Assembly (NCBI RefSeq): GCF_008757455.1
Contig: NZ_VCMV01000009.1
Coordinates: forward strand, 1 to 64,000
Reading direction: 5' to 3'
DNA length: 64,000 bases
Source of the DNA: Microvirga brassicacearum
Lineage (GTDB): Bacteria > Pseudomonadota > Alphaproteobacteria > Rhizobiales > Beijerinckiaceae
In this document: one piece after another, positions 40,011-61,653 of the stretch
How positions within the stretch are numbered: position 1 is the stretch's first letter
Layout: the number at the start of each line of letters is the position of its first letter
Notes under the pieces: model-generated
Seen by the model: only the letters and a program-made list of their open reading frames with translations
Database searches by the model: none
Told to the model about the DNA's origin: nothing
Program-made: the position numbers and the translations under genes

Positions 40011-40033
40011 GATTCGTGGCAACCAATGCTTTA

Positions 40034-41677: not shown

Positions 41678-42065
41678 CAATTTACTCCGTAGGCTCCTCA
41701 TGATTTCGCGTCTGGTCGATCCCGAAATCATGAGAATGTGGTCGATCCCATCGTCCAATGCGAGGGCTCGAAAAAGCGCGAGGAATCCGCTTCCCTGTTC
41801 GTCTTGACTACCGAGGCACGTAACTCCCGCGGAACTGGACAGGTCGAGAAGCTCTCCAAGTACCCTAAGCTCCCTCGCAAATCCCAACATGCGGGATATA
41901 TATTCCAAATATTGACAGCTAAAACGCGTTGCGGCAAGTTTCCTGGAACAAGAATTTTGGCGGGGATGCCGCAATAGGCACCCATAAAACCAAGGGAGCG
42001 GGCATGGCCAAGCGGATATTCACGACACCGAAGATGCTGCTCGACGCCCAGCTCCCCGAACTGCC
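41678..42065. promoter_or_regulatory. Divergent promoter region between IclR gene and the NMT1/amidohydrolase operon
   Basis: These 388 bases separate divergent genes and should contain both promoters. No strong palindrome was found by eye. A 26-codon frame at 42004-42084 begins MAKRIFTTPK but is too short to support. Confidence 0.4.
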
Positions 42066-43043: not shown

Positions 43044-43072
43044 ATCCAAATACCAAACAGGGGAACTACGCA

Positions 43073-44074: not shown

Positions 44075-44145
44075 GGCCGGATCATGCAATCGGAGTGCCC
44101 GGATCAGTCTCCGGGTATCCCCACCACGCAATCGGACAATCTGCT

Positions 44146-46832: not shown

Positions 46833-46859
46833 ATTCGAGAGTTGAAAGGTACGCGTCCC

Positions 46860-47873
46860 GTGAGAGCATTCTACATCAAGGAACATGGCGGTCCCGAAGC
46901 CTGCGTCTACGCAACCGACTACCCGGACCCGGTAGCCAGGCCCGGTGAAGTCGTGCTTCGCGTCAAGGCGTCGACCCTGAATTACCACGACATCTTCACA
47001 CGGCGCGGCATGCCGGGCATTACGCTGCGCCTGCCGGTCGTTCCAGGCCTCGATGTCGCAGGTGAGGTCGTCGAAATTGGCGAAGGCGTCGAAGGCTGGT
47101 CGCTCGACGACCGCGTGGTTGTCGACCCGATCAATCGGATCGGCCGCGGCATTGTCGGCGAGACGATCGATGGCGGCCTTGCCGAGTACTGCGCGGTTCC
47201 GGCGCATCAGCTGATCCGTATCCCGGACAATGTGGATTTCAATACGGCCGCCGTCATGCCGACCGCCTATGCGACAGCGCTGCGCATGATGTTCACCAAT
47301 GGCCGCGTCTCGGAAGGTGAGAAGGTGGGCGTTCTTGGCGCCAGCGGCGGTGTCGGCGTCTGTTGCGTGCAGCTTGCCAAACTCGCCGGGGCCGAAGTCG
47401 TCGCCTTCGCCGGCTCGGACGAAAAGCTCGCGCGCCTCAAGGAGCTCGGCGCCGACCACGTTATCAACTATCAGGAAAAAGATTTCCTGGAGGAGATATA
47501 CAGCCTCTATGGCAAGCCGAGCCGCCGGGGCCCAAAGGCCACCAACGGGCTCGACGTCATTGTCAACTATACAGGCGGGGACACCTGGGTGAAGTCGCTG
47601 AAGACGCTGCGCGTCGGCGGCCGCCTTCTGACCTGCGGCGCGACCGCTGGCTTCGACCCTGTCGAGGACATTCGCTATATCTGGGTATTCGAACTCCAGA
47701 TCCGCGGATCAAATGCTTATACACGCGAGGACATCGTCACCTGCCTTGATCTGGCGAGCCAGGGCAAGCTGAAGGCGCTCATCGATGAGACCTACACGCT
47801 TGATCGGGCCGCTGAAGCATTTGCCCGCGTCGAAGAGCGTCGTGTTCTCGGCAAGGTGCTGGTTCGCCCATGA
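46860..47873 (+). CDS. Zinc-binding-dehydrogenase-like MDR enzyme (enoyl/quinone reductase type)
   Basis: A 337-residue medium-chain dehydrogenase. It has STLNYHDIFTRRGMPG in the first domain and GASGGVGVCCVQLA as nucleotide-binding motif. The C-terminal ERRVLGKVLV is typical. It is related to, but clearly different from, the MDR protein at 42066. It probably handles a CoA-bound or free unsaturated intermediate. I use the GTG at 46860, with AAAGG ten bases before it, rather than a TTG six codons earlier. It overlaps the thioesterase gene by 4 bases. Confidence 0.9.
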   Translation: MRAFYIKEHGGPEACVYATDYPDPVARPGEVVLRVKASTLNYHDIFTRRGMPGITLRLPVVPGLDVAGEVVEIGEGVEGWSLDDRVVVDPINRIGRGIVGETIDGGLAEYCAVPAHQLIRIPDNVDFNTAAVMPTAYATALRMMFTNGRVSEGEKVGVLGASGGVGVCCVQLAKLAGAEVVAFAGSDEKLARLKELGADHVINYQEKDFLEEIYSLYGKPSRRGPKATNGLDVIVNYTGGDTWVKSLKTLRVGGRLLTCGATAGFDPVEDIRYIWVFELQIRGSNAYTREDIVTCLDLASQGKLKALIDETYTLDRAAEAFARVEERRVLGKVLVRP

Positions 47874-48319
47874 CATCCCCGACCGCTCCCGATCTCGAGC
47901 GCTGGCTGCGACAATCGCCCTTCGTCGCGTTCATGGGTCTCGAACTTGCCTCGGCCGACCCGGCCGAAGGCAAGCTTGCCTTGCGCATGAAGCTGAAGCC
48001 GGAATTCGAGCGTTCCGCCGGCGCTTCCGGCCGATGGCATGGCGGCGTGATTTCGGCGCTTGCCGATACAGCAGGCAACTTCGCACTGATCATGGTACAT
48101 GGCGCGCCGCCGCCGACCGTAAATATCCGCATTGATTATCTGCGGCCGATCATGGGTGAGGCGGTGATCGCAACGGCGCTCGTGCGCAAGACCGGTCGCA
48201 GCATCGCCTTTGTGGATATCGATATTCATAGCGAAGACGGCTCTCTCGTAGCAATCGGGCGTGCCAATTATGCGACGTCCGGATTACAGGGCGCTACACC
48301 GAGGGAGCGCAAGCCATGA
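47870..48319 (+). CDS. PaaI/hotdog-fold thioesterase
   Basis: A 149-residue hotdog protein of the PaaI family. It has the conserved GRWHGGVISALADTAGN stretch with catalytic Asp (about 57-73), VNIRIDYLRPI and the final strand VDIDIHSEDGSLVA. It hydrolyses acyl-CoA thioesters, either as the last step or to rescue CoA from a dead-end product of the synthetase. It overlaps both neighbours by 4 bases (ATGA and TGA/ATG junctions), so it is firmly part of the operon. Confidence 0.9.
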   Translation: MTSPTAPDLERWLRQSPFVAFMGLELASADPAEGKLALRMKLKPEFERSAGASGRWHGGVISALADTAGNFALIMVHGAPPPTVNIRIDYLRPIMGEAVIATALVRKTGRSIAFVDIDIHSEDGSLVAIGRANYATSGLQGATPRERKP

Positions 48320-49116
48320 CAGCAGACAATAAATCGATTGTCGGCCAGAATTTAAACCTCATCTACCGGCGCGCCGGCGCCGAGCCGGTTGCGGCACTCC
48401 AGGATGTGTCGTTCACCATCGAAGACGGGCAGTTCATTTCCCTGATCGGACCATCCGGCTGCGGGAAAACCACGCTTCTCAAGATCTTCGGTGATCTCCT
48501 GGTACCGACATCGGGTCAACTGACCATCAATGGCGAACCGCCATCAGTATTGCGGCGCCGACAGGCGATCGGCCAGATGTTTCAGGATGCAACCCTACTG
48601 CCGTGGAAAACCATCGGCCAGAACATCGCGCTCCTGGGGGAGATCGCCAGCCGCAAGCCGCCACCGCATGAGGTGGCGGCGCTCGCCAACATGGTGGGGA
48701 TCGGTCGTTTCATCGACAATTATCCGCATGAGCTGTCGGGCGGCATGCGCCAGCGCGCGGCACTCGCCCGCGCCTATGCCCTGAAACCCCGGATCCTGTT
48801 GATGGACGAGCCATTCGGCGCGCTGGACGAGATCACGCGCGAACATATGAATGACGAACTCGTGCGCATCTGGACGAAGAGCCGGCTTACTGTGATCTTC
48901 GTCACCCATTCGATTGCCGAAGCCGCCTATCTCTCCGATCGCGTCCTCGTCATGGCGCCGCGCCCAGGCCGCGTCGTGGCTGAAATCAGCATCGATATGC
49001 CCCGCGAACAACGCCCGGCGGAGCGGTTCGGACCAGAGCTGACACGCTGCGCCGAAGAGATTCACCACCACCTCGTGACGAATATGCAGCTGGGGAATGA
49101 AAATGAGCCTGCTTAA
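48316..49116 (+). CDS. ABC transporter ATPase (SsuB/TauB/NrtD class)
   Basis: A 266-residue ATPase with Walker A GPSGCGKTT at about 47-55, LSGGMRQR at about 141-148 (the GMRQR form is typical of nitrate/sulfonate/taurine-class ATPases), Walker B LLMDEPFGALDE and switch His FVTHSI. It energises the permease encoded next and serves the NMT1-type binding protein at 43073. It overlaps the thioesterase gene by 4 bases. Confidence 0.92.
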   Translation: MTADNKSIVGQNLNLIYRRAGAEPVAALQDVSFTIEDGQFISLIGPSGCGKTTLLKIFGDLLVPTSGQLTINGEPPSVLRRRQAIGQMFQDATLLPWKTIGQNIALLGEIASRKPPPHEVAALANMVGIGRFIDNYPHELSGGMRQRAALARAYALKPRILLMDEPFGALDEITREHMNDELVRIWTKSRLTVIFVTHSIAEAAYLSDRVLVMAPRPGRVVAEISIDMPREQRPAERFGPELTRCAEEIHHHLVTNMQLGNENEPA

Positions 49117-49855
49117 CCGGTTCCTACCTGGCATCACTATCGTTGTGGCGCTGCTGATCTGGGAGTTCTCGACCCGCTATTTCGGAATCAAGGAGTTCAT
49201 CCTGCCTGCGCCTTCTGTGGTGCTCGCGACCGCCGTCACCATCGCTCCCGAGCTCATGCGTAATATGTGGGCGACGCTCTCGGTCCTGCTCGTCGGCTAC
49301 GGACTCGGTGTCGTACTGGGCATTGCGCTTGCCGTGCTGATGATAATCCTACCTCCCGTCCGGCGGGCTCTCTACCCGTTGGTCGTGATGTCGCAGACAA
49401 TCCCGAAGATCGCCATCGCTCCGCTTCTGATCCTGTGGTTCGGCGTCGGGCCCGAGCCGAAAGTGTTCATCATCGCGCTGCTTGCCTTCTTCCCAGTGCT
49501 CGTCAACACGGTAGCGGGCCTGGAAGGAACGGATCGCGGGCATCTGGAGCTCATGCGCTCCGTGAACGCCAATCTCTGGAAGGTCTATCGGCACGTCCGT
49601 CTGCCTGCTGCCGTGCCCCAGATCTTCGCCGGACTGAAGCTCGCATTGACCGTGAGCGTGATCGGCGCGGTCGTCGGCGAATGGGTTGTCGGCAACCAGG
49701 GGCTTGGCTATCTGCTGCTGGCCTACAACTCCTCGCTCCTAACCGCCAATGTGTTCGCCACCTTGCTGTTGATTATTCTGATCAGTGCAGTCCTGTTCTA
49801 TTCCATCACGCGGATTGAACGGGTCTTTTCATGGCGCGCGCGCCTGGATAGCTGA
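49103..49855 (+). CDS. ABC transporter permease (SsuC/TauC class)
   Basis: A 250-residue permease with about six membrane segments. It contains the class signature PKIAIAPLLILWFGVGPEPK and an EAA-like loop ELMRSVNANLWKVYRHVRLPAAVP. It completes the transporter with the ATPase upstream. ATG at 49103 gives better spacing from the GGGGA site than the ATG two codons earlier. It is the last gene of the operon; a strong terminator follows 25 bases after its stop. Confidence 0.9.
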   Translation: MSLLNRFLPGITIVVALLIWEFSTRYFGIKEFILPAPSVVLATAVTIAPELMRNMWATLSVLLVGYGLGVVLGIALAVLMIILPPVRRALYPLVVMSQTIPKIAIAPLLILWFGVGPEPKVFIIALLAFFPVLVNTVAGLEGTDRGHLELMRSVNANLWKVYRHVRLPAAVPQIFAGLKLALTVSVIGAVVGEWVVGNQGLGYLLLAYNSSLLTANVFATLLLIILISAVLFYSITRIERVFSWRARLDS

Positions 49856-49879: not shown

Positions 49880-49908
49880 AGAAGGGCGGTCTTGCGGACC
49901 GCCCTTCT
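49880..49908. terminator. Bidirectional rho-independent terminator between convergent operons
   Basis: A perfect 12-bp stem (AGAAGGGCGGTC at 49880-49891, GACCGCCCTTCT at 49897-49908) encloses a 5-base loop. On the minus strand it is followed by CTTTTTCG, and on the plus strand by CATTTCAT. It sits between two long convergent operons and should end both. Confidence 0.9.
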
Positions 49909-49935: not shown

Positions 49936-51006
49936 TCAAATAACCGGTTGGGCCAATCCCTTGGTCTGGGCCCTCAGCAACATGCCGAACAGGTCGCGCG
50001 GCTCATCCGGATCGGCGAGAAGATCGAGATCTTCGGAAAAACCCGCTCCTTTCAGCTTGTCATGGACATAGCGCAGTGCGGAGAAATCCTCCGTCGCGAA
50101 GCCAACCGAATCGAACAGCGTGATCTGGCCGGCATGGTTGCGGCCGGGCAGCTTGCCGCTGATCACTTGCCAGAGCTCGGTCACCGGATGGTCGCCCGGC
50201 AATTGCTGGATCTCGCCTTCGATCCGCGTCTGGGGCGGATATTCGACGAAGATTTCAGAGCGCATCAGGATGTCGCGGTGTAGCTCTGTCTTGCCCGGGC
50301 AGTCGCCGCCGACCGCGTTGATGTGAACGCCGCTCCCCACCATGTTATCTGTCAGGATCGTGCTGTACTGCTTGTCGGCTGTCGCAGTCGTAATGATAGC
50401 GACGCCCTGAACCGCCTCCTGCGGCGAAGCACAGCTTTTGATCGAGAAGCCGAGACCTTTGAGATTGCGCATGCATTTCGCCGTCGCCGCCGCATCAATG
50501 TCATAGAGTTGCAAGCGGTCGACGCCGAGAATCGCCTTGAAAGCCAGCGCCTGAAACTCGGCTTGCGCGCCATTCCCGATGATCGCCATCGATGTTGAGC
50601 CTTCCGGCGCGAGATATTTGGCGGCGACTGCGGATGTCGCGGCGGTTCTGAGCGCTGTCAGGATGGTCATCTCGGAGATCAGCCGAGGGTAGCCGCTCGC
50701 GACATCGGCCAGCATGCCGAAGGCCGTCACGGTCTGCAGACCTTCCTTCATATTCTTCGGGTGGCCGTTCACATATTTGAAACCGTACAGAATGCCATCG
50801 CTCGTCGGCATCAGTTCGATCACACCATCACGCGAATGCGACGCCACGCGCGGCGTCTTGTCGAAGACCTCCCAGCGGCGGAAATCTTCCTCGATATAAC
50901 CGGCCAGCTCCGTCAGGAAGGTTTCGACGCCGATGCTCAGCACCAGCTTCATCATATGGTCTACGCTGACAAAGGGGACGATGTTGAGCTGTCTGTCGGT
51001 GATCAT
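49936..51006 (-). CDS. Ornithine cyclodeaminase/mu-crystallin-family protein
   Basis: A 356-residue protein with the NAD-binding motif AIIGNGAQAEFQALAF (about 133-148). Other ornithine-cyclodeaminase marks are KYVNGHPKN, GADKQYST-like (here ATADKQYST) and GGDCPGKTEL. Members deaminate ornithine to proline or reduce cyclic imines and keto acids. Bacterial ones of this length are often true cyclodeaminases or opine-type enzymes. It is the last gene of the minus-strand peptidase operon, ahead of the terminator. I choose ATG 51006 since homology starts at MITDRQLNIVPFVS; the ribosome site is weak. Confidence 0.88.
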   Translation of the reverse strand: MITDRQLNIVPFVSVDHMMKLVLSIGVETFLTELAGYIEEDFRRWEVFDKTPRVASHSRDGVIELMPTSDGILYGFKYVNGHPKNMKEGLQTVTAFGMLADVASGYPRLISEMTILTALRTAATSAVAAKYLAPEGSTSMAIIGNGAQAEFQALAFKAILGVDRLQLYDIDAAATAKCMRNLKGLGFSIKSCASPQEAVQGVAIITTATADKQYSTILTDNMVGSGVHINAVGGDCPGKTELHRDILMRSEIFVEYPPQTRIEGEIQQLPGDHPVTELWQVISGKLPGRNHAGQITLFDSVGFATEDFSALRYVHDKLKGAGFSEDLDLLADPDEPRDLFGMLLRAQTKGLAQPVI

Positions 51007-51031
51007 GATTCTGGTCTCTGCCGGCACCGCT

Positions 51032-51904
51032 TCACGATTCCTGATTGGTGCGTTCGCACCGCTCATAATGAGCCGCAATGTCGCGCCCGGTAGCGATCCA
51101 GACATCGTCGAACTGCCGCACATGCGTGAGGAATTGGTCAAGGATGCGGATGCGCATCGGACGTCCCGTCACCTGTGGATGCATCACCATCGTGGTCACC
51201 CCGCCCCATTCGCGTGTCTGATCGAATTCGTCGCGCCAGATCGACAGCACGTCCTCGCGACCAAACATCGCGCGCGGGCTTGTGCGGTGGGTGAGTCCGT
51301 AGCTCCAGTCGTCAAAGCTGTAGTTGACGGGGATTTCGATCGGTCCGGCACCGGAAGGCAGCACATGCCGATAAGGCCGAATATCGTCGCGGAAAGAGCT
51401 CGAATACCGGATGCCGCGCGACTTCAGCAGTTCGAGCTGCTCGACACAGGTCTCGCCCCAGGGCGCGCGGTAGCCGGTCGGAGAGATGCCGAGAACACGC
51501 TTCATCGCATCGATGGCGCGATCCATCTCTTCGATCCGCGTCGCTTCGTCAGCCGTGTCCGGGCGCAGATGCAGATAGCCGTGATGAGCGATCTCGTGAC
51601 CGTCGGCCAAGATTGCCTCGCAGGCGGCCGGATGTGCGTCGATCGACCAGCCGGTCACAAAAAAGGTTGCTTTGACCTCATGGCGCCTCAGCACTTCGAG
51701 GATTTTTGGAATGCCGACGCGTGCTTCGTAGCCGCCATAGGACATGGTGACGAGCCGCTTCGCATTCTGCGGGTCGGCGCCGAGCCAGACCGATTCGGCG
51801 TCGACATCGAAGGCGGGGAACAACGCGCATTGCGTGCCGTTCGGCCAGGGGTATTCCGGAGCCGCCGGTGCCGGGTTTGAAGGTCTGGTCGCAAGCAGGT
51901 CCAT
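51032..51904 (-). CDS. Polysaccharide deacetylase-fold hydrolase (PuuE/HpPgdA-like, probable cyclic amide or imide hydrolase)
   Basis: A 290-residue NodB-fold protein without a signal peptide. Catalytic and metal residues are visible: Asp33/Asp35 (AFDVDAESVW), His103, His107 and His108 (GHEIAHHGYLH), GYRAPWGE and the late His in TMVMHPQVTGRP. This arrangement is that of cytoplasmic PuuE allantoinase and HpPgdA-type proteins, which open cyclic amides or imides, rather than of secreted chitin-type deacetylases. In this operon it likely opens a ring or removes an acyl group from an imported nitrogen compound. Substrate unknown. Confidence 0.82.
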   Translation of the reverse strand: MDLLATRPSNPAPAAPEYPWPNGTQCALFPAFDVDAESVWLGADPQNAKRLVTMSYGGYEARVGIPKILEVLRRHEVKATFFVTGWSIDAHPAACEAILADGHEIAHHGYLHLRPDTADEATRIEEMDRAIDAMKRVLGISPTGYRAPWGETCVEQLELLKSRGIRYSSSFRDDIRPYRHVLPSGAGPIEIPVNYSFDDWSYGLTHRTSPRAMFGREDVLSIWRDEFDQTREWGGVTTMVMHPQVTGRPMRIRILDQFLTHVRQFDDVWIATGRDIAAHYERCERTNQES

Positions 51905-51935
51905 GATGAGATTCCCTCAGGTTGATGGGCGGATG

Positions 51936-52613
51936 TTAGCTTCTGCCTTGTGTCTGCATGATCTGGGCGAGTACAAGCCCGGCCGCGGCCTGCGTCGGAT
52001 CGACGACGGGGAGTCCCACGGCGCGCTCCAGCGGCGCCACATACCGGGCAAGACCGGCCGCGGCAAACAGCAGGGCTTCAGCTCCGGCATCTCGCAAGGC
52101 GAGGCCTGCCACGATGGCGCGCTCGGTTACGAAATCAGGATTCTGCAGCTGGTCATAGGTCAGGCCGAGGCCGCGATGCCCTGCAATGCGCGCCGCGACG
52201 CCCATATGCCGCGCAACCCGCATGCTCTTGACGCCCGGCCCGGCAGCAACGCCAATCGTGCCGACAAGCTCTCCGAAACTAAGGGCTGCGGCGAAGCCTG
52301 CCTCGCCAATGCCGACGACGGGCTTCGAAGTCAGACCGCGCGAGGCGAAGACGCCGGGATCCGAAAAACAGGCGACGACAAAGCCGGCGGTCTCCTCGCG
52401 CGCAGCTTGCCTTTCGATGAAGCGCAGAACCGCCGGGGCCGCGTCGTCGCTATCGCGTGCCGTGCTGATGCCGCGCGGCCCGTCCTCCAGAGTCAGGCAG
52501 TTGATCTTGGGCATTCCGTCACGGTCCACCCATGCCAGGCTGCGGGCAATATCTTCCGTGATCCCCGTATCCGTGCGGCTCGACGCGTTGATGACGTGGA
52601 TAATCCGCTGCAT
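51936..52613 (-). CDS. Aspartate/glutamate/hydantoin racemase-fold protein lacking the second catalytic Cys
   Basis: A 225-residue protein of the Asp/Glu racemase superfamily, closest in pattern to hydantoin racemases. The first catalytic cysteine is present (VVACFSDPG, Cys82). The second site, normally in a GCAGM-type motif, reads LLFAAAGLARY (183-191 region) with Ala in place of Cys. A two-base racemase mechanism is therefore not possible as usually drawn; a one-sided isomerase, decarboxylase or lyase is more likely. ATG at 52613 follows GGAGGTAGGAG. It starts 5 bases after the M28 peptidase stop. Confidence 0.82.
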   Translation of the reverse strand: MQRIIHVINASSRTDTGITEDIARSLAWVDRDGMPKINCLTLEDGPRGISTARDSDDAAPAVLRFIERQAAREETAGFVVACFSDPGVFASRGLTSKPVVGIGEAGFAAALSFGELVGTIGVAAGPGVKSMRVARHMGVAARIAGHRGLGLTYDQLQNPDFVTERAIVAGLALRDAGAEALLFAAAGLARYVAPLERAVGLPVVDPTQAAAGLVLAQIMQTQGRS

Positions 52614-52618
52614 GGCTC

Positions 52619-54436
52619 CTACCTCCAAGGCCCCTGGCCGGCGACGACAGCCATGCTCGTCGTGTCTTGCCGGCCGCCTTCTGCGATCATGCGGAAATCG
52701 TCGATCAGATTGCGGGCGGCCTCGAGCGCGTCGGTGATCGACTGGCGCAGGCGCATCAGTTTTGTCTTCAGCAGCCGTGCCTGGAGCGTATCCGCCGGAA
52801 GCGTACGATAATCCTGAAGGCAGGCCAAAGCCGGAACGGGCTGGGCGAGCGTGCTGACGCCATAGCTGTCCTGGCCGTAACGGCCGATTGCCGAACTCGT
52901 CAGAAAGGTCAGAAGTCGGCTCAGGCGCAAGATCAGCCGGTTTGCGCGGATCCGCACAGCATCCGGCGCCGTCGCGGCTGCTCCATCGAGATAGGCCTCG
53001 AACCAGCCGATCTCACTCTTGAGCGTTGCGAGCGCCATCGGGATCCGCGCGAGGTCCGCCGGATCGCTGCCGTCGCCGATCATCGCTGCGAAGCGTTCTT
53101 CGAGATCGGCGAGGCGCATACCGAAGCGCTGCGGCAGGACAGGCTTCGTGACCAGCGCATGCACATATCGGGAGCACCAGTCGAGATCGGCTTCCAGCGC
53201 CGCCTCGTCCACCACGTCGATCGTGTCGAATTCCGTGTGGTTATACCACCCAAGCGTTGCTCCGTTCTGGTCCTTGACCACTGCCGGGCTGTAGCTGTGC
53301 CGGCCGGTCGCGGCGGAGACACCGACACCGAAGAAGGACTGATCACCGACACGGCGCAGCGTCGTCACCTTTTGCGGAAGCGTACCGGCGAAGACCGCCT
53401 TCGACATCTCTGCCGAGAAATCTGCTAGTTCGGGGCAGGAATTTATGTGGAACTCCTCCGTCCCCTTCATGCCGACGGAGTCGATGTTCACATAAGCGAC
53501 CGCATCACGGTTAATCCGCTCCCAGTGGCTATCGACGAAATAGGTCGACCCAGCGGCTTCCGCGACCTCATGTCCGTTCCAGAAGCAGAAGACCACCGAG
53601 CGCCGTAATCTGTCGCGCTGCCGTGAGAGCAGGTGCGCGATCTCCATCATCACGGACATGCCGGTGATGTTGTCGGTGACGCCGGGATTCCAGGAATCGA
53701 TATGACCGGAGACGATGACGAACTGGTCACGTTCCGGAGCATCCGCTGGCGCGTTCAACCAGGCAAGCGGCTGATAGAGCGTACGCCAGAGGCGGCTTGC
53801 GGTGAGGCGGATATGGAGCGTGACCGGACCCTGCGCCATCTTCCGGCGCAACATGATCCCGTCGGAGCGCGATATGCTGACCCCAGAAATGCGCGGAATG
53901 TCGCCCCAATTCTCAGGCGTCGGATTGCCCCAGACAGATTTCAACGCACGCCAGGGGATTTCCTTTCCTTCGTCGCTGCCCCAATTCATGAGTACGATGC
54001 CGGCTGCACCCATCGACGCCGCGATGCGCGCCTTTTCCGGTGTTGCGGGTGCATAGGACACTTCGGCGAGCACAAACTTCCCGCGAACATCCTTGCCGTC
54101 ATAATCGGAAAGCCCTCCCGGGCCGACATCGATGAGCTCGGCAATCAGGCCAGCCTCCGGTGTCGGCTCGGCATGAAGGCAGGGCCGCGCCGTGATCGGC
54201 GTCCCGCCCGGGTCATCGAGCGCGACAAAGGCTTCGCCAATGTCGCTGTCGAACGTTTCAAACGGCTGCAGGCTTGCATCGAGACCGTAGGAGGAAAGCG
54301 TCTCGACCACATACTGACCGGCAGCCAGATCCTGTCCGCCGCCACTCTTCCGATTGGGGAAGTTGGTCCGCATGTGATGCACATGCCGCATGACCTGAGC
54401 AAAGGAATAGTCGAGCGTGCTCATGCGGGATGTCAT
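52619..54436 (-). CDS. M28-family metallopeptidase with PA domain
   Basis: A 605-residue protein. Residues about 80-200 form a PA-type insert (VRGKFVLAEVSY). The M28 catalytic domain shows SGHIDSWNPGVTDNITGM (His and Asp ligands), the Glu in NGHEVAEAAGS, Asp in NIDSVGM and the last His in YNHTEFDTID. No signal peptide is seen, so it is likely cytoplasmic, unusual for PA-M28 enzymes. It should remove N-terminal residues or split an amide of an imported compound. The start overlaps the M20 gene by 4 bases. Confidence 0.87.
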   Translation of the reverse strand: MTSRMSTLDYSFAQVMRHVHHMRTNFPNRKSGGGQDLAAGQYVVETLSSYGLDASLQPFETFDSDIGEAFVALDDPGGTPITARPCLHAEPTPEAGLIAELIDVGPGGLSDYDGKDVRGKFVLAEVSYAPATPEKARIAASMGAAGIVLMNWGSDEGKEIPWRALKSVWGNPTPENWGDIPRISGVSISRSDGIMLRRKMAQGPVTLHIRLTASRLWRTLYQPLAWLNAPADAPERDQFVIVSGHIDSWNPGVTDNITGMSVMMEIAHLLSRQRDRLRRSVVFCFWNGHEVAEAAGSTYFVDSHWERINRDAVAYVNIDSVGMKGTEEFHINSCPELADFSAEMSKAVFAGTLPQKVTTLRRVGDQSFFGVGVSAATGRHSYSPAVVKDQNGATLGWYNHTEFDTIDVVDEAALEADLDWCSRYVHALVTKPVLPQRFGMRLADLEERFAAMIGDGSDPADLARIPMALATLKSEIGWFEAYLDGAAATAPDAVRIRANRLILRLSRLLTFLTSSAIGRYGQDSYGVSTLAQPVPALACLQDYRTLPADTLQARLLKTKLMRLRQSITDALEAARNLIDDFRMIAEGGRQDTTSMAVVAGQGPWR

Positions 54437-55596
54437 GGCATGGGCCTTTCATGCGAGGATTTCAGAAAACGGATCGCAAAATCGATGTAGAGGTCGCGGG
54501 CGAGATGAAGCTGATCGAGGTCGACCCATTCGTCGCCGGCGTGCATGTTCGCACCCCCCGGCCCGAAAAGGATTGTCGGGATGCCTGCGCGCCCTGAAAA
54601 GATATTGGCATCCGAAACGCCGCGCCCGAAGGCGAGGTCCGGTTCCTTGCCCAGAACGCTCCGATAGGCGTCCGCGAAGCCGGATACGAAAGGATGGTCG
54701 CGCTCGAGCAGAAAGCTTTCATAGCGCGGCTCGCGGACCGTTACGCTAAAGCAGGCCTGCGAGTTCAGCCGGGCAACCAGCCCCTCGATGAGCGTGACAG
54801 CGCCGTCCACCGTTTCGCCTGGCATGAAATGCCAGTTGATCGTGAAGGTGCATGTGTCTGGAACGCGGATCTCGTAGCGTCCATCGCCCGCGGCGACATC
54901 GAGCACGCAGTGGCTCGCCCTACCGAAATCCGGGTGGGAAAAGCGCTCCAGCCCGTCTATCGCAACCAGCAGCCGGGCAGCCTCGATCACCGCGTTGACC
55001 CCCTGCTCGGGACGCGAACCGTGGGCGGAACGCCCCTTGACCTCGACCCGCAGATTGATCTTGCCCATGGAGCCGATCACGACATCTTCGAAATGCGGCT
55101 CGCACATGATGGCAGCGTCGATGCCGCGGTCCTTGCGGATGAAGGCATTCGCGCCACGCGAATAGGCCTCCTCGTCAGCGAGTGCGGAAAAGATCAGCCG
55201 GCCGCTCCACTCGGCGCGCCGCCCGTGCAAATCACGGACGGTTTCCATGGCTGCCGCAAGCCCGGCCTTCATATCCATCGTGCCGAGGCCGTAGAGCCTG
55301 TTATCCTCGATGCGCGGGGCGTGCGGCTCACGCGTCCAGCCGGAAGCGATGCCGACCGTGTCGCAATGGCCGCCAATCCAGAGCGTCTGACCATCGCCAT
55401 TGCCGCGGATTTCGACAACGACATTCTTCAGCCCGCCATCGACCTCCTCGATCTCCGCCGTAATGCCATGACTGGCAAACCAGTGGGCAATGCGGTCCTG
55501 AACGGTCGCTTCGTCACCTGAATAGCTTTCGATCGAGACCAGTTCCTCGAGCAGCCCGATAAGCCTGCTGTCATAGACGCTGTTAGCCATTATCAT
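54433..55596 (-). CDS. M20-family peptidase/deacylase (ArgE/DapE type)
   Basis: A 387-residue M20 enzyme with the two-zinc signature: GGHCDTVG (His, Asp), GTMDMKAG (Asp), ADEEAYSRG (Glu pair), CEPHFED and the C-terminal HAGDEWV His. Members cleave acetylornithine, succinyl-diaminopimelate, carnosine-like or N-carbamoyl compounds. The start ATG 55596 overlaps the M24 gene stop by 4 bases (ATGA), which decides it; an ATG two codons on is also possible. Confidence 0.9.
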   Translation of the reverse strand: MIMANSVYDSRLIGLLEELVSIESYSGDEATVQDRIAHWFASHGITAEIEEVDGGLKNVVVEIRGNGDGQTLWIGGHCDTVGIASGWTREPHAPRIEDNRLYGLGTMDMKAGLAAAMETVRDLHGRRAEWSGRLIFSALADEEAYSRGANAFIRKDRGIDAAIMCEPHFEDVVIGSMGKINLRVEVKGRSAHGSRPEQGVNAVIEAARLLVAIDGLERFSHPDFGRASHCVLDVAAGDGRYEIRVPDTCTFTINWHFMPGETVDGAVTLIEGLVARLNSQACFSVTVREPRYESFLLERDHPFVSGFADAYRSVLGKEPDLAFGRGVSDANIFSGRAGIPTILFGPGGANMHAGDEWVDLDQLHLARDLYIDFAIRFLKSSHERPMP

Positions 55597-57236
55597 GCCT
55601 CGGCCGTGAACGGGATCGCGCCGCTCTCGGTGACGAGATAGCCGTCCTCGATCGCTATCAGGATCTCTCCGATTGGCCAGACATATTCCGTGCAGCCGAG
55701 CATACCCTCTTCTATTGTCTCGGTGACACCGGGAAGAAAATAGACCGAAGAAATCGTCTGGCGCTGGATCGTGTGGCCGCAATCGCGCAGATAGCTATCG
55801 ACATTCATGCCTTCCGGCAGAAGACCGAGGCGGCGCAAATCCGCCTCCAGCGGGCGCAAACAATCGACGCCGACGGCGTGTACCTCCTGCCCGGTCATTC
55901 CCGGGCGAATGGCGGGGATCAGCTCATCGACGAGAATGGTCCGTAGCCGATCATGCAAGGCCTCGATTTCAGAATCGGCGCAAATTGTGCGCGCGATATC
56001 CGAGCAACCACGCAGACAGCCGAACGCGTCTGCGACCATCAGACCCATATCAAACTTGATCGTCTTGTCACGAGTGCTGACCGGATAATCACCTGCGGTC
56101 GCCGGCAGGAGAGTTCGCGCGCCTGAATGCACGATGTCGAAATAGGATGACACGCGGTTCTCAAAGCCATAGCGGCGAGCAAAGCGGCGGACAGCCTGAT
56201 GATAAACCGCGACGAGATCGCGCTCGGTCAGCTTTCCCTCGGCATTGCGCGTCAGGAGCGCACGCGCTGCTGAAATTCCTTTCAGAACGGCATTCGCCGC
56301 GAAGATGAAGTAGACGAGATCATCGCCTGCCCGGCGATCCTGCCAGCGGCGCAGCACATAAGCGGCATCCTCCAGCTCCAGCTCCGCTTCCGCCAGCGGC
56401 AGATAAATGCCGGTCGCGAGATGGTCCTTCTGGAAACCGATCCGCTGCGCCCCTGTCGCCAGAAGCGCCGCGGCAAGGCCGTCCGCCCGGCCTGCGGGAG
56501 CAAAACCCACGCCGTCAATCGCCCGCGCCGACAAAAGGAGGATCGTCGTTTCGTCCGGGTTGAACAGCGCGGAAATGCCATACTGCTCGATGACCGCGGA
56601 AGGGAGGCCAGTGAACATCTCGACTTCATGCGCCGCTGTGACGTAGAGCGCCTGAAATCCCCTTTCGCGGCACAGCGCGTCAAGGGGCGCGAAACCTCGG
56701 TTATGGGCCGTCATGGCCGCAACCAACGCATCACCGTTCCGCAGCCCGGCGACGAACGGCGCAAAACGCGCAGCATCGGCATCGCGGGTCGCGATCCATA
56801 GAGCTTCGATATCGCTGCGCGTTTTCCTATAGACGAATAGCTCCGCCGAATCCGGCAAGTCAAACAATGTCACAGGACCGCTATCAGCGAGCATCTCATA
56901 GCGACTGACGGGAAGCGTGGCTTCGCAAGCAATCGCTTCCGGGCCGGTGATCTTGCGCACGGCCTGCGCAAAACTCGTGACTGGCGCGCTCATGTCCCTG
57001 TCCCAGGAAAAATAGCGGCCATAGCTCTCCGCGGTGACACCAGGCGTCATCACGCGGCAAGCGTCGGAATCCGCTTCGCTGACAACGGCCGAAATCTTGC
57101 CGCCTTGCTCTATCACGACCGGGGAAACATTGAGCGGCGATCCGCGATAGATCCCTGGATAGGTCAGCTGATCACCTAACTCGAATCCGAGACGATCGAT
57201 CACGCGATCAAGGCTGGCATAGAGTCGAGCCGTCAT
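55593..57236 (-). CDS. M24-family metallopeptidase (Xaa-Pro aminopeptidase-like)
   Basis: A 547-residue protein with an unusually long N-terminal part (two creatinase-N-like modules to about 320), then a C-terminal pita-bread domain. M24 ligands are seen as IKFDMG, SDIART, RDCGHTI, VTETIEEGM and TEYVWPI. Members remove a residue preceding proline, or hydrolyse creatine or related amides. Normal prolidases are about 360-460 residues, so the extra N-terminal module is notable. It lies 120 bases after the binding-protein gene in the same operon. Confidence 0.83.
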   Translation of the reverse strand: MTARLYASLDRVIDRLGFELGDQLTYPGIYRGSPLNVSPVVIEQGGKISAVVSEADSDACRVMTPGVTAESYGRYFSWDRDMSAPVTSFAQAVRKITGPEAIACEATLPVSRYEMLADSGPVTLFDLPDSAELFVYRKTRSDIEALWIATRDADAARFAPFVAGLRNGDALVAAMTAHNRGFAPLDALCRERGFQALYVTAAHEVEMFTGLPSAVIEQYGISALFNPDETTILLLSARAIDGVGFAPAGRADGLAAALLATGAQRIGFQKDHLATGIYLPLAEAELELEDAAYVLRRWQDRRAGDDLVYFIFAANAVLKGISAARALLTRNAEGKLTERDLVAVYHQAVRRFARRYGFENRVSSYFDIVHSGARTLLPATAGDYPVSTRDKTIKFDMGLMVADAFGCLRGCSDIARTICADSEIEALHDRLRTILVDELIPAIRPGMTGQEVHAVGVDCLRPLEADLRRLGLLPEGMNVDSYLRDCGHTIQRQTISSVYFLPGVTETIEEGMLGCTEYVWPIGEILIAIEDGYLVTESGAIPFTAEA

Positions 57237-57356
57237 GAGCGGCCATCCTTTTGCAGAATGTAAAGGGCCCCGAATTCCCCAGGACCGCTTTTCTTTCGAT
57301 CGAATGGCCGCCGCGTTTGCTCACACGGCAGCCGGCAGTTCCTCAAGGGCGCCGCA

Positions 57357-58232
57357 TCATTTGCGGCGGGGCTCGACATTGATCATCGTCGCCTTCACTT
57401 CCGCATAGGGCATCTCCCACTTTGCGAAGATCTTGGAGTAAGTCCCATCAGCGATCATGGCGTCGACGGCATCGGCCACCACGTTGCGCAGTTCCGTATT
57501 CGCTTTGGAGAAACCGAAGCCGGCATAGTCGACGGCGATGGGGTCGCCGATCAGCTTGAACTTGCCGCGATCGGCCGATTCCTTCTGCTCGTTGAGATAG
57601 CGGATCGCATCGACGCCCTGAGCGGCCGCAGCCGCACGCTTCTGGAGAAGTTGCAGGCGCGCATCCGCCGTCTTGTCGACAAGCACATATTCGACCGCGG
57701 GCAGGCCCTTTGCCACGCAGACCTTCTCATTAAAATCCCTCAGGCGGATGAGGAAGATACCGTTGCGATTGACGGCGATGGGCTTGCCGCACGCGTCTTC
57801 GACCTTGTTGAGGCCGGCGCCCACATCCGGCATGGTGAAAAGCTGCGTGCCTGTAGAGAAATAATCCACGAAGTCCGTCTTCTCGCGGCGGGCCGGGATA
57901 TCGGTCATGCCTGACGCACCCATATCGATGCGGCTGGTATCAAGCGAGTTGATCAGCTGGTCGAAAGACTGTTCCTTCCACTCGATCTTGAGTCCGAGAC
58001 GACGTCCGATCTCCTCAACGAGATCGATATCGAGGCCCTTCAGTTCGAGCGTTGCCGTGTCCTTGTACTCAAGCGGCGGATAGGTAGGACTGGTGCCGAC
58101 CACCAGCTTTCCGGCATCTCGAATTCGCGCTGGAAGCTTGCTGTTCAAGGCGTCCTGCGCAGTGGCCGCACCACCCGACAGTACGATGGCGGCGGCGAGC
58201 GCGCCGCTGAACAATGCTTGCTGCATCTTCAT
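57357..58232 (-). CDS. ABC transporter substrate-binding protein, polar amino acid type (family 3)
   Basis: A 291-residue periplasmic protein with a signal peptide ending ATAQ (about 1-25). Family-3 features include the AGKLVVGTSPTYPPLEY start, LDIDLVEEIGRRLGLKIEW and MGASGMTDIPARREKTDFVDYF. These proteins bind amino acids, opines or amino-acid derivatives. The missing carboxylate-binding Arg or its presence cannot be judged by eye. It is transcribed after the permease and ATPase genes. GAGAGGGAA precedes ATG 58232. Confidence 0.92.
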   Translation of the reverse strand: MKMQQALFSGALAAAIVLSGGAATAQDALNSKLPARIRDAGKLVVGTSPTYPPLEYKDTATLELKGLDIDLVEEIGRRLGLKIEWKEQSFDQLINSLDTSRIDMGASGMTDIPARREKTDFVDYFSTGTQLFTMPDVGAGLNKVEDACGKPIAVNRNGIFLIRLRDFNEKVCVAKGLPAVEYVLVDKTADARLQLLQKRAAAAAQGVDAIRYLNEQKESADRGKFKLIGDPIAVDYAGFGFSKANTELRNVVADAVDAMIADGTYSKIFAKWEMPYAEVKATMINVEPRRK

Positions 58233-58256
58233 GTCTATTCCCTCTCTCGTTGTGGA

Positions 58257-59033
58257 TCAGCTTGGCTCGGAAACGTTGAATCGCTGCAGGAAATCGCGCG
58301 TGCGCTGCTTCTGGGGCGTTGCGAACAGATCCTCCGCCGGGGCGCACTCGATGAGCTGCCCCTGATCCATGAAGGCGATGCGGTCGCAGACGTCGCGGGC
58401 GAAAAGGAGCTCGTGGGTGACGACGACCATTGTCCGACCCTGTTGCGCCAGTTGCCTGATCGTTTCAAGCACCTCGTCAACGAGTTCGGGATCGAGTGCG
58501 GAAGTCGGCTCGTCAAAAAGCAGGATTTCTGGATCCATAGCCATGGCGCGGGCAATCGCCACGCGCTGCTGCTGGCCTCCGGAAAGCTGGACAGGATAGC
58601 GATCATACAATCCGGCAAGACCCACCTGATCGAGAAGGTGGCGACCTTGCTCCCCCGCGTCCACCCGCGACAACTTTTTGACGATAATCGGTCCGCTCGT
58701 GACATTCTCGAGCGCGGTCATATGCGCGAAAAGGTTGAAGCGCTGGAACACCATTCCGATGCGCATGCGCTGAGCGGATTGTTCACGATCGCTCAGTTCG
58801 CGAAGATTGCCGCGTTCGAAGCAATAACCAACGAACTCGCCGTTTACATAGAGATCGCCGCTGTCGATCGTCTCAAGGCTGTTGAGGCAGCGCAGAAAGG
58901 TGCTCTTGCCGCTGCCTGAGGGTCCGATGATCCCGAAAACTTCGCCTGGCTGAACGTCGAGACTGACGCCGCGAAGCACGCTCACCGAACCGAAAGATTT
59001 GCGCAAGTCACGCGCGAGAATGGCGGGGATCAT
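58257..59033 (-). CDS. ABC transporter ATPase, polar amino acid type (GlnQ/HisP class)
   Basis: A 258-residue ATPase with Walker [10 protein letters not shown] (about 36-44), signature LSGGQQQR (about 149-156), Walker [15 protein letters not shown] and switch His VTHELLF. These are all typical of GlnQ/HisP ATPases. It overlaps the permease gene by 4 bases and the binding-protein gene follows 24 bases later. It energises uptake for the peptidase operon. Confidence 0.93.
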
Positions 59034-59911
59034 GCGCCGACACCCTCCTCTACTTTAAGTTTGCCGGAAGATTTGTTAAGCGACCGACCAAGTCGGTTTT
59101 CGAGAAGGGCCTGCCCGAGGCTGAGGAGTGTGACGGCGAAGAGATAGTATATCGAACAGACGATCAGCATTTCGATGACACGGTTGTTGACAAAATAGAT
59201 CATCGACGCGGTGTGCATGATCTCGTGATAGCTGATCACGGCCGCGAGCGAGGTGTGTTTCAGCATGCCGATCACCTCATTGCCGATCGGCGGTGTGATG
59301 ATGCGCAGCGTCTGCGGTAGGACGATATGGCGCAGGACTTGAGGAGCGCGCATGCCCACAGCTTTTGCCGCTTCGATCTGGCCGGAATCCACTGAAAGAA
59401 TGCCGGCGCGAATGACTTCCGCCGTGTAGGCGCCCTGACAGACGCCGAGGCCAAGAAGTGCGGCGAGAAATGGCGTCATCACGTCGACCGTGCGCGCTTC
59501 CACAAGCCCAGGGATTCCAATTACGGGGAAGATCAGGGCAAGGTTGAACCAAAGAAGAAGCTGAAGATAGACAGGCGTGCCGCGAAAGAACCAGATGTAG
59601 CCGGCAGCGACCGCATTCGCCACCGGATTGGATGACAGCCTCATCAGCGCGGCGAGAAGGCCGAGCGCGATGCCCAACGCCATTGCGAGGACCGTCATCA
59701 AAAGCGTGTTGCTAAAACCGATCATGATCGCCTTGGCCGTCAGGAATTGGCCGACATAAGACCATTCAATCTGACCGTAAGCGAATGCCCGGAAAACGAG
59801 CGAGAGTAGGATGACGCATACCACAGCGGTGACCCATCGCATCGGATGGCGCAGCGTCACACGTGCGACATTTGTCATCGTGGGAAGATCGCTTTCGAGA
59901 GAAGTCGTCAT
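59030..59911 (-). CDS. ABC transporter permease, polar amino acid type (HisM/GlnP class)
   Basis: A 293-residue permease. Features are GFSNTLLMTVLAMALGIALG, the FFRGTPVYLQLLLWF motif of amino-acid permeases and the EAA loop QIEAAKAVGMRAPQVLRHIVLPQ. A single permease probably forms a homodimer. I choose ATG 59911, preceded by AGGTCGGA, over an in-frame start 39 codons upstream that is not family-like. It is the first gene of the 10-kb operon that ends at the 49.9-kb terminator. Confidence 0.9.
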   Translation of the reverse strand: MTTSLESDLPTMTNVARVTLRHPMRWVTAVVCVILLSLVFRAFAYGQIEWSYVGQFLTAKAIMIGFSNTLLMTVLAMALGIALGLLAALMRLSSNPVANAVAAGYIWFFRGTPVYLQLLLWFNLALIFPVIGIPGLVEARTVDVMTPFLAALLGLGVCQGAYTAEVIRAGILSVDSGQIEAAKAVGMRAPQVLRHIVLPQTLRIITPPIGNEVIGMLKHTSLAAVISYHEIMHTASMIYFVNNRVIEMLIVCSIYYLFAVTLLSLGQALLENRLGRSLNKSSGKLKVEEGVGA

Positions 59912-60080
59912 CAGTTCCGACCTGAGCTTTCTGAAGCGTATTCCGTGTACGCAGCGCCGTGTTCTTAGCGGACGCTTAGACGAGGAAAGTCCCACAAAGG
60001 ACGAGATGATGTCAACTATAGAGATCAATATCCCAATATATGGGATGCGGAATCTCTATGGTACTCTCGCGGTGGCTTTG

Positions 60081-60586
60081 GGTTCCGTCGCAAATTTGAA
60101 GTGGGGACTGCTGCGTTAACCGGTGTGAGGTAACCCGGGGAGGCCATTTGAGGAGTCGCTCTGTTGTCGATTCACGCGCCGCCGCTTTCCGGTGGAAATC
60201 ATCCTGTTGTGCGTGCGCTGGTACTGCAAGTACGGGATCACCTGATCTGGCCGAGATGATGCAGGAGCGTGGCGTCGCGGTCGACCCAAGCACCATTTTC
60301 CGCTGGGTTCAGCGCTACGCTCCAGAGATCGAGAAGAGGGTCCGCCGGTACCAAGGTCATTGGATATCATCCATTGCTTCGTATCGGATGATCTTCTCCA
60401 GCAGGTCTGCGGGCGTGATCCAATCGATGCGCCGCAACACCAAAGACCTGATTTAAACCAAGAGGAAAAGAGGTGAGCCAAGTCCGCGGTGAATTGACCA
60501 CTTCCCACCCTTTGCAGCCGTCCTCAGGCATTCCGCCTGCGGGGTTCCTAGTATTTTTTGCATCACTTCAAATTTGCGACGGAACC
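60081..60586 (+). mobile_element. IS6-family remnant with perfect 23-bp inverted repeats and foreign interior
   Basis: GGTTCCGTCGCAAATTTGAAGTG at 60081-60103 is exactly repeated inverted at 60564-60586. Inside, two plus-strand frames give the IS6 transposase start: RRFPVEIILLCVRWYCKYGI, then after a frameshift LAEMMQERGVAVDPSTIF and RWVQRYAPEIEKRVRRYQGH. The DDE catalytic core and C-terminus are gone. They are replaced from about 60357 by a scrap that resembles malonyl-CoA decarboxylase. Flanking octamers (TGGCTTTG and GAACACAC) do not match, so no target duplication is seen. The 506-bp unit is non-autonomous but keeps both ends. Confidence 0.8.
60357..60449 (-). pseudogene. Short scrap resembling malonyl-CoA decarboxylase
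   Basis: Minus-strand codons from 60449 to the stop at 60357 read LVLRRIDWITPADLLEKIIR and then YEA. Malonyl-CoA decarboxylases share a segment of the form RI(T/D)W-TPA-LLEKII-YEAVHE, so this looks like an internal piece of that gene. It lies inside the IS6 inverted repeats exactly where the transposase breaks off. The piece is only about 25 residues, so chance cannot be ruled out. Confidence 0.4.
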
Positions 60587-60645
60587 GAACACACTCTTCG
60601 AGACCTTGAGCTCCCGTCGCGTTGGCTCACCCTGTCGCGGAAGCC

Positions 60646-61542: not shown

Positions 61543-61587
61543 GCTTTAGCTCTTGCACAAAATCTCACCAGCTCGCCAGTTGTGCCC

Positions 61588-61618
61588 TTTGTAACATGTG
61601 GTAGTCTATTTTTGTAAC
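61588..61618. promoter_or_regulatory. Direct repeat TTTGTAAC in divergent promoter
   Basis: TTTGTAAC occurs at 61588-61595 and again at 61611-61618, 23 bases apart start to start, in the 111-base region between the divergent RpiR and binding-protein genes. The repeat could be a regulator site or part of promoter elements. Evidence is the repetition alone. Confidence 0.35.
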
Positions 61619-61653
61619 CGTTGGTTCACAACGGCAGGCGAAGAGGGTTTGCC

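What the first reader, a model, noticed from the sequence alone, without database searches (positions are those of the whole stretch)
49936..59911. Ten-kilobase operon joining amino-acid uptake with three peptidase families, a racemase-fold protein and a cyclic-amide-type hydrolase
Nine minus-strand genes with mostly 4-base overlaps or short gaps run into one strong terminator. M24, M20 and M28 enzymes, a PuuE/PgdA-like deacetylase, an Asp/Glu-racemase-fold protein and an ornithine-cyclodeaminase homologue appear together with a single importer. This looks like a dedicated route for a modified, perhaps cyclic or D-configured, amino-acid conjugate or small peptide. It is the best candidate in the window for an undescribed system.
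Basis: partly seen in the sequence, partly recalled or inferred. Interest (0 to 1): 0.75.

Follow-up and report, generated by a model that had tools for sequence, protein, structure and literature searches.

The report
Two-operon IclR-controlled amide-catabolism island
A bacterium carries a rare gene island, probably spread between species, whose two operons share one regulatory DNA signature and probably import and dismantle an unusual blocked or cyclic amino-acid compound whose identity is still unknown.

Summary
The nine-gene operon is real, but it is only half of the system. Its promoter carries a palindrome (TCCCA-N6-GGGA, then 15 nt, then TTGACA). Exactly one other copy exists in the 5.2-Mb genome, also in the window: between an IclR regulator (40952-41677) and a convergent operon (42066-49855) encoding an isoaspartyl-dipeptidase-like amidohydrolase, an adenylate-forming enzyme, a thioesterase, dehydrogenases and a second ABC importer. 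The exact element is also in 7 of the 8 other complete loci, including a Gammaproteobacterial plasmid (Pantoea sp. At-9b). An IclR relative and the M24-M20-M28-racemase-fold order recur in 9 of 9 complete loci. Two Chelatococcus-genus genomes keep the convergent-operon genes with the deacetylase and cyclodeaminase at a second locus.

Best reading: an inducible catabolic regulon for an N-blocked or cyclic amino-acid amide or peptide, perhaps ending at ornithine and proline. The substrate is not identified. Several enzymes lack hallmarks of their named families: the racemase-fold protein lost its second catalytic cysteine, the amidohydrolase lost isoaspartyl-binding residues, and the M28 protein carries NGHE. 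Ectoine-pathway membership was tested and not met. I rate it a new variant of a known kind (catabolic island), interest 0.5.

The parts
60010..60045 (-). operator palindrome TCCCATATATTGGGA, 15-nt spacer, TTGACA (-35-like) upstream of the peptidase operon
59030..59911 (-). amino-acid (PAAT-type) ABC permease
   Evidence: Pfam PF00528; ORF
58257..59033 (-). amino-acid ABC ATPase
   Evidence: Pfam PF00005
57357..58232 (-). amino-acid-type solute-binding protein with Gly at the place aligned to the HD Asp of glutamine-binding protein
   Evidence: PF00497; alignments
55593..57236 (-). 547-aa M24 hydrolase with long N-terminal extension; no NCBIfam match
54433..55596 (-). M20 ArgE/DapE-type deacylase (start by eye)
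   Evidence: TIGR01910 206.1 bits, cut-off 217.6
52619..54436 (-). M28 hydrolase with PA domain; WNGHE motif
51936..52613 (-). Asp/Glu/hydantoin-racemase-fold protein lacking the second cysteine (Ala here)
51032..51904 (-). PuuE-like polysaccharide-deacetylase-family hydrolase
49936..51006 (-). ornithine cyclodeaminase (NF005762, 572 bits, cut-off 350)
49880..49908 (-). terminator-like hairpin
40952..41677 (-). IclR-family regulator, relative of the cluster IclRs; start codon chosen by eye
   Evidence: ORF
41882..41917 (+). second copy of the operator and -35-like element, between IclR and the convergent operon
42066..43043 (+). zinc-type quinone oxidoreductase/dehydrogenase
   Evidence: orthologue in L067/L068
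43073..44074 (+). NMT1/SsuA-type solute-binding protein
44095..45336 (+). isoaspartyl-dipeptidase-like amidohydrolase (GTG start chosen by eye)
45333..46832 (+). class I adenylate-forming enzyme
46842..47873 (+). zinc-binding dehydrogenase
47870..48319 (+). 4HBT thioesterase
48316..49116 (+). ABC ATPase (PF00005; SsuB-type by eye)
49097..49855 (+). ABC permease (PF00528; SsuC-type by eye)
60078..60589 (.). decayed insertion-sequence-like relic (26-nt inverted repeats) just upstream of the operator
   Evidence: no Pfam match

Best explanation
The island is one inducible catabolic regulon of two convergent operons under an IclR-type regulator. Shown: the gene content, the shared operator-promoter element, the recurrence of both, and altered active-site residues. 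Inferred: IclR binding, the substrate class and the order of steps. Proposed working: a PAAT importer brings in an amino-acid derivative whose carboxylate is free but whose alpha-amino group is blocked (acylated, ring-bound or in an amide). The PuuE-like and isoaspartyl-dipeptidase-like hydrolases open a cyclic or isopeptide-type amide. M24, M28 and M20 then release the acyl and amino-acid parts. Ornithine cyclodeaminase turns released ornithine into proline. The acid part is activated by the adenylate-forming enzyme and handled by the thioesterase and dehydrogenases. The single-cysteine racemase-fold protein probably does a one-sided proton transfer or decarboxylation rather than racemisation.
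For: Exact operator element: two copies in the whole 5.2-Mb genome, both in the window, and one exact copy each in 5 of the 6 other cluster-carrying genomes scanned (G112, G015, G055, G435, G501; not G160), none in 3 same-genus genomes without the cluster. In the window at up to 2 mismatches: 2 found, both exact, 0.13 expected, though 2 of 100 shuffles also gave 2. In a 397-genome order sample the exact element occurs in G000 (two), G435, G501 and once in G422; M24 carriers in the order sample are G000, G435 and G501 (hypergeometric P 3.9e-7, taking the two samples as the same genomes; optimistic, since G000 and G435 helped to derive the motif). The G501 site and the window's operon site were not used to derive it. 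The second-operon genes plus deacetylase and cyclodeaminase are together again in G015 and G055, next to CtlX, above its equivalog cut-off in G015 and at the same place in G055. Binding protein: Arg of the carboxylate site kept, aligned Asp replaced by Gly in 3 of 3 orthologues (roles recalled). Relatives sit with hydantoin-type or carbamoyl hydrolases.
Against: No substrate, growth or binding data. The second locus of G015/G055 lacks the operator at up to 2 mismatches, so co-regulation of both gene sets is shown only in the window. G160 has the palindrome in its IclR-M24 gap but not the full element. The deacetylase is in-cluster in only 5 of 9 complete loci and the isoaspartyl-dipeptidase-like gene in 4 of 9; G160 and G435 have no isoaspartyl-dipeptidase-like hit. 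Five of nine loci have a Dpp-type oligopeptide transporter instead of, or besides, other importers, which fits plain peptides too. Cyclodeaminase is in or near the cluster only in the window and G435, and at the second locus in G015/G055; ocd beside ctlX is also common in plain citrulline use (PMC9007349, passages). CtlX was not found in the window's genome at E 1e-20.
Confidence: 0.5

Rival explanations
1. Cyclic ureide or imide (hydantoin- or dihydropyrimidine-like) degradation: the PuuE-like protein is the ring hydrolase, the amidohydrolase and M20 finish the carbamoyl or amide cleavage, with no special link to ornithine.
For: Related gene sets stand with N-carbamoyl-D-amino-acid hydrolase, hydantoinase A/B (hydantoinase B also), and dihydroorotase plus hydantoinase/carbamoylase.
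Against: Three peptidase-fold enzymes are more than such a route needs; PuuE equivalog not met (99.8 bits against 424.6); no classical hydantoinase or carbamoylase is among the scanned island genes.
Confidence: 0.2
2. General scavenging of ordinary peptides: the peptidases are broad and the set is an oligopeptide-use operon.
For: Four of nine complete loci (G015, G055, G160, G435) have a Dpp-type binding protein, two permeases and an extra M24 gene between M24 and M20; in 65-79 a Dpp-type transporter follows the exact operator (binding proteins of G015 and 65-79 and the G015 permease confirmed by Pfam; extra M24 of G435).
Against: Tight, rare, regulator-linked set with altered catalytic motifs; racemase-fold, deacetylase and adenylate-forming genes do not fit ordinary peptide use.
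Confidence: 0.12
3. Use of beta-aspartyl-arginine from cyanophycin: isoaspartyl dipeptidase, then arginine to ornithine to proline.
For: Isoaspartyl-dipeptidase-like gene, cyclodeaminase, and in G015/G055 CtlX and an arginase-family gene.
Against: TIGR01975 cut-off not met (268.9 against 331.25); the positions of E77, T106, Y137 and S289 of E. coli IadA read A, V, M and P in the window protein (counted by hand), although R233 is kept; E77, T106 and R233 are substrate-binding residues (PMC10206079, passage; roles of Y137 and S289 recalled).
Confidence: 0.08
4. Ectoine-type (eut/doe) degradation: M24 opens ectoine, a deacylase and cyclodeaminase follow.
For: Same general make-up: M24, deacylase, cyclodeaminase and arylmalonate-decarboxylase-like protein (PMC3187862, passages); PAAT importer ehuABCD (recalled).
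Against: No EutD/DoeA match for the M24 (no NCBIfam family at E 0.001), EutC 96.5 against 471.65, EhuA-D all below cut-off.
Confidence: 0.04

Closest known systems
Ectoine utilisation eutABCDE / doeABX with ehuABCD importer (S. meliloti, Halomonas)
   Same: M24 hydrolase, deacylase, cyclodeaminase-family protein and arylmalonate-decarboxylase-like protein (eutA) in one catabolic cluster (PMC3187862, passages); PAAT importer (recalled)
   Different: None of the family models tested reaches its cut-off; the M24 is far longer (547 against 399 aa for DoeA); extra M28, deacetylase, isoaspartyl-dipeptidase-like and acid-activating genes
Isoaspartyl dipeptidase IadA (cyanophycin and isoaspartyl dipeptide use)
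   Same: Amidohydrolase fold; aligns over nearly its whole length with E. coli IadA
   Different: Equivalog cut-off not met; substrate-binding positions changed in 4 of 4 cluster homologues aligned
PuuE allantoinase / cyclic imide hydrolases / PgdA
   Same: Polysaccharide deacetylase family; best solved relative 3rxz, also PuuE chains
   Different: TIGR03212 cut-off not met; substrate unknown
CtlX-OCD citrulline use
   Same: Ornithine cyclodeaminase; CtlX next to it in G015 and G055
   Different: No CtlX found in the window's genome; here the cyclodeaminase ends a peptidase operon
M28 plus Asp/Glu-racemase pairs in Acuticoccus, Haladaptatus and Nitratireductor
   Same: M28 and racemase-family genes close together, with an ABC transporter in two and M20 genes in two
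   Different: M28 identity only 26-35%; Haladaptatus and Nitratireductor have WPGHS instead of WNGHE; partner racemases keep both cysteines (read by eye)

Membership tests
Ectoine eut/doe system | EutD/DoeA-type M24 | tested here: not met
   no NCBIfam family at E 0.001 for the M24
Ectoine eut/doe system | EutC-type cyclodeaminase | tested here: not met
   TIGR02992 96.5 bits, cut-off 471.65
Ectoine eut/doe system | EhuABCD transporter | tested here: not met
   EhuA 287.5/345.4, EhuB 37/190.9, EhuC 112.6/196.95, EhuD 118/205.2
Ornithine cyclodeaminase | equivalog score | tested here: met
   NF005762 572 bits, cut-off 350
Ornithine cyclodeaminase | ornithine to proline activity | not testable with these tools
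   needs enzyme assay
Isoaspartyl dipeptidase (IadA) | equivalog score | tested here: not met
   TIGR01975 268.9, cut-off 331.25
Isoaspartyl dipeptidase (IadA) | substrate-binding E77, T106, R233 | tested here: not met
   E77 to A, T106 to V, R233 kept (alignment; residue roles from PMC10206079, passage)
Asp/Glu/hydantoin racemase | fold | tested here: met
   PF01177 116.3 bits, cut-off 31
Asp/Glu/hydantoin racemase | two catalytic cysteines | tested here: not met
   first Cys kept, second is Ala in the window and Gly in the 8 other orthologues; both are needed in OpaE (PMC12661438, passages)
PuuE allantoinase | equivalog score | tested here: not met
   TIGR03212 99.8, cut-off 424.6
Peptidase M24 | domain and five metal ligands | tested here: met
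   PF00557 57.7, cut-off 23; D396 D413 H488 E517 E530 invariant in 8 of 8 aligned (ligand assignment recalled)
Peptidase M28 | domain | tested here: met
   PF04389 70.4, cut-off 21.3
Peptidase M28 | Glu general base before the metal Glu | tested here: not met
   WNGHE in 9 of 9 rows that cover it, so His at that place (role recalled)
Cyanophycin use | cyanophycinase in the genome | not tested
   no search was made

The most novel reading that the evidence does not exclude
The island encodes an undescribed pathway for arginine- or ornithine-derived, N-blocked or cyclised conjugates (for example imidazolone-, lactam- or isopeptide-type adducts). It would use a three-peptidase cascade whose racemase-fold, M28 and isoaspartyl-dipeptidase-like members have been re-purposed by loss of canonical catalytic or binding residues, under its own IclR operator, and spread by horizontal transfer between Alpha- and Gammaproteobacteria.
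Probability: 0.3. Interest if true: 0.7.

Novelty: new variant of a known kind. Interest (0 to 1): 0.5.

Why it matters
It gives a bounded, regulator-defined gene set with a promoter signature that is confined to it in the genome, so the unknown substrate can be sought by induction (which compound turns on the two promoters) instead of guessing enzyme by enzyme. It also offers natural active-site variants of several well-known enzyme families, conserved together.

Tried and rejected
Ectoine membership was tested with family models and not met. Structure prediction could not be used, so the N-terminal extension of the M24 stays unexplained. Literature: eight completed searches for a described cluster or substrate; I saw listings with the starts of abstracts, often capped: 3 of 3 papers listed; 15 of 17; 12 of 34; 12 of 2,452; 12 of 34; 8 of 27; 8 of 9; 0 papers held four of the six cluster words. 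None of the rows listed describes this set, but a description beyond them or outside the held library cannot be excluded. A ninth (Pantoea At-9b plasmid; 6 of 270 listed) gave general papers. Chelator (EDDS/iminodisuccinate) use was considered because the deacetylase also sits with ArgH-like and MmgE/PrpD genes (in the window's own genome L069); it was not followed because those genes are not among the island genes scanned. Xanthine-dehydrogenase-like genes beside the IclR in G160 and in the window are only 26% alike and were not counted. Rows dropped: BEIJ2 fragment (3-kb contig) left out of 'complete loci'; duplicates L009=L015, L012=L017, L018=L013 counted once; the distant M24 of G973 (248.9 bits) left out. 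Query ends for IclR and the amidohydrolase were approximate, corrected afterwards (for the amidohydrolase; the IclR start from the ORF, by hand).
Full report
What is there. Junctions in order, read by eye, are -4, +24, +120, -4, -4, +5, +31 and +25 nt. The cyclodeaminase passes its curated cut-off (572 against 350 bits). The M24 protein, 547 aa, matches no NCBIfam family at E 0.001, and the PuuE, EutC, Ehu and ArgE/DapE models stay below cut-off.

Where else it is. M24 relatives are rare: 6 of 199 same-family genomes, 3 of 397 in the order, 1 of 398 in the phylum sample, the window's own, 2 of 385 in the class sample, the other one distant, 3 of 4 in the Chelatococcus-like genus, 1 of 20 and 1 of 10 in the families of G501 and G435, and 4 loci in one pattern-based scan of the GTDB contigs. 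These samples overlap. A Pantoea sp. At-9b plasmid carries SBP, M24, M20, M28, racemase-fold, amidohydrolase, a Pot-like transporter and deacetylase (transporter type by eye). Counting distinct loci there are 9 complete ones (window, Pantoea, C. asaccharovorans, Rhizobiales MAG 65-79, G015, G055, G160, G435, G501) and one fragment. M24, M20, M28 and racemase-fold genes occur in that order in 9 of 9. In five they are adjacent. In G015, G055, G160 and G435 a Dpp-type binding protein, two permeases and a further M24 gene stand between M24 and M20 (4 of 4), and in G435 two ATPase-like matches lie between M28 and the racemase. An IclR relative (49-61% to the window's in 7 loci; 58% to the Chelatococcus one in G501) is present in 9 of 9.

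One module moved between genomes. In the M24 tree the window, Pantoea, C. asaccharovorans, 65-79 and G501 are parted from G015, G055, G435 and G160 with support 100/99. The same-genus genomes G112 (C. asaccharovorans) and G015/G055 fall on opposite sides, and a Gammaproteobacterium sits among Alphaproteobacteria. The M20, M28 and racemase trees show no strongly supported conflict but have weak or open forks, and G160 is a long branch in M28. Horizontal transfer is inferred from this and from the patchy spread.

The regulatory signature. I compared the gaps between IclR and its neighbour in seven regions. The best shared 15-mer is the palindrome TCCCAAATATTGGGA (summed score 80; the best scores of 30 letter shuffles averaged 61.1, s.d. 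0.8). In both window sites the palindrome is followed after exactly 15 nt by TTGACA. In the window at up to two mismatches there are 2 matches, both exact, 0.13 expected; 2 of 100 shuffles reached 2. Genome-wide, at up to one mismatch, the window's genome has 2 sites, both in the window; G112, G055 and G435 have one exact site each; G015 and G501 have one exact site plus one with a mismatch elsewhere; G160 and three same-genus genomes without the cluster have none; the reversed-pattern control gave one hit in the ten genomes. In 397 genomes of the order the exact element is found in G000 (2), G435, G501 and G422 (1, not examined), with one control hit. In the order sample the M24 is found in G000, G435 and G501 alone. 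Pantoea and 65-79 carry the exact element too; in 65-79 the exact copy stands before a Dpp-type binding protein (PF00496) and its permeases, and a copy with one mismatch stands upstream of M24. So 8 of 9 complete loci have the full element; G160 has the palindrome only. Binding by IclR is inferred.

The second half. The second window site lies between the IclR gene and a convergent operon: dehydrogenase, NMT1-type binding protein, isoaspartyl-dipeptidase-like amidohydrolase, adenylate-forming enzyme, dehydrogenase, thioesterase, ABC ATPase and permease. Homologues of the amidohydrolase stand next to the racemase-fold gene in Pantoea, C. asaccharovorans and G501. In G015 and G055 all eight genes (62-84% identity) stand with the deacetylase (79%) and cyclodeaminase (70%) at a second locus. 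There the cyclodeaminase is followed by a CtlX homologue, and an arginase-family gene is close by (CtlX 411 bits, cut-off 334, in G015). That locus has no operator at up to two mismatches. A trio of adenylate-forming enzyme, thioesterase and dehydrogenase (30-58% identity) also occurs on Methylobacterium, Sodalis and Paenibacillus plasmids, in M. radiotolerans within about 20 kb of dihydroorotase, racemase-family, hydantoinase/carbamoylase and Xaa-Pro-peptidase genes.

Altered enzymes. (1) The racemase-fold protein aligns to Klebsiella allantoin racemase with the first cysteine kept and the second lost: Ala in the window, Gly in the 8 other orthologues, while the Acuticoccus, Haladaptatus and Nitratireductor relatives keep both (read). 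In OpaE both cysteines are needed (PMC12661438, passages). (2) The amidohydrolase keeps the His pair, Lys162 and Arg233 of E. coli IadA but has A, V, M and P at E77, T106, Y137 and S289 (counted by hand); the other three cluster homologues also differ at these four places. (3) M28 has WNGHE in 9 of 9 rows that cover it; the usual Glu general base would be His (role recalled). (4) The binding protein has Gly where glutamine-binding protein has the Asp of its HD motif, in 3 of 3 orthologues; that this Asp holds the alpha-amino group is recalled. M24 keeps five putative metal ligands in 8 of 8 aligned.

Function. Free carboxylate, blocked amine, amide-type hydrolases, an acid-activating module and an ornithine cyclodeaminase point to an N-blocked or cyclic amino-acid amide, or a small peptide holding one, with an ornithine-family part. 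The ornithine part is the weakest step: the cyclodeaminase is with the system in 4 of 9 (window; G435 beside IclR; G015 and G055 at the second locus), and ocd beside ctlX is a known citrulline arrangement (PMC9007349, passages). The deacetylase family also occurs with ArgH and MmgE/PrpD genes in Chelatococcus CO-6, Gemmobacter and the window genome's own contig C15, with an arginase-family gene in the last two, which fits an arginine-type theme but is not proof. The Dpp-type transporters in five of nine loci would also suit ordinary peptides.

Comparison. In general make-up it resembles ectoine utilisation (PMC3187862, passages) but fails every ectoine family model that was reported for it. 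In the literature rows I saw (Tried and rejected) no described system has this set.

Noticed in passing
window 60078-60589: 26-nt inverted repeats 460 nt apart with decayed coding between them, an insertion-sequence relic 32 nt from the operator; looks IS6-like by eye, no Pfam match.
   Followed up: partly
window 60646-62673: RpiR-type regulator with SIS domain and a divergent NMT1-type binding protein start another transport locus; what follows it was not examined.
   Followed up: no
G000 contig C15, L069:2384-11769: A paralogous locus in the same genome: ArgH (511 bits, cut-off 279.5), PAAT importer, quinone-oxidoreductase (63%), MmgE/PrpD, deacetylase (74%) and an arginase-family match; similar sets on Chelatococcus CO-6 and Gemmobacter plasmids.
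   Followed up: partly
L029, L031, L033: M28 relatives carry WPGHS instead of WNGHE, so the usual metal-binding Glu position appears to be Ser; seen in Haladaptatus, Deinococcus and Nitratireductor, with a racemase-family gene close by in Haladaptatus and Nitratireductor.
   Followed up: partly
L013:5532-7234: In the G160 metagenome bin the M28 gene matches in two separate frames; sequencing error or decay, not resolved and not mended.
   Followed up: no
window 35410-38609: Molybdenum-hydroxylase-like FAD and large subunits (read by eye) near the IclR gene; Methylobacterium plasmids also have xanthine dehydrogenase genes near the related module, but identity is only 26-27%.
   Followed up: partly
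window 5669-8253: Two adjacent phosphodiesterase/phosphonoacetate-hydrolase-like genes beside a Dpp-type transporter (read by eye).
   Followed up: no
window 39325-40128: Minus-strand ORF that reads like a transposase fragment (by eye).
   Followed up: no
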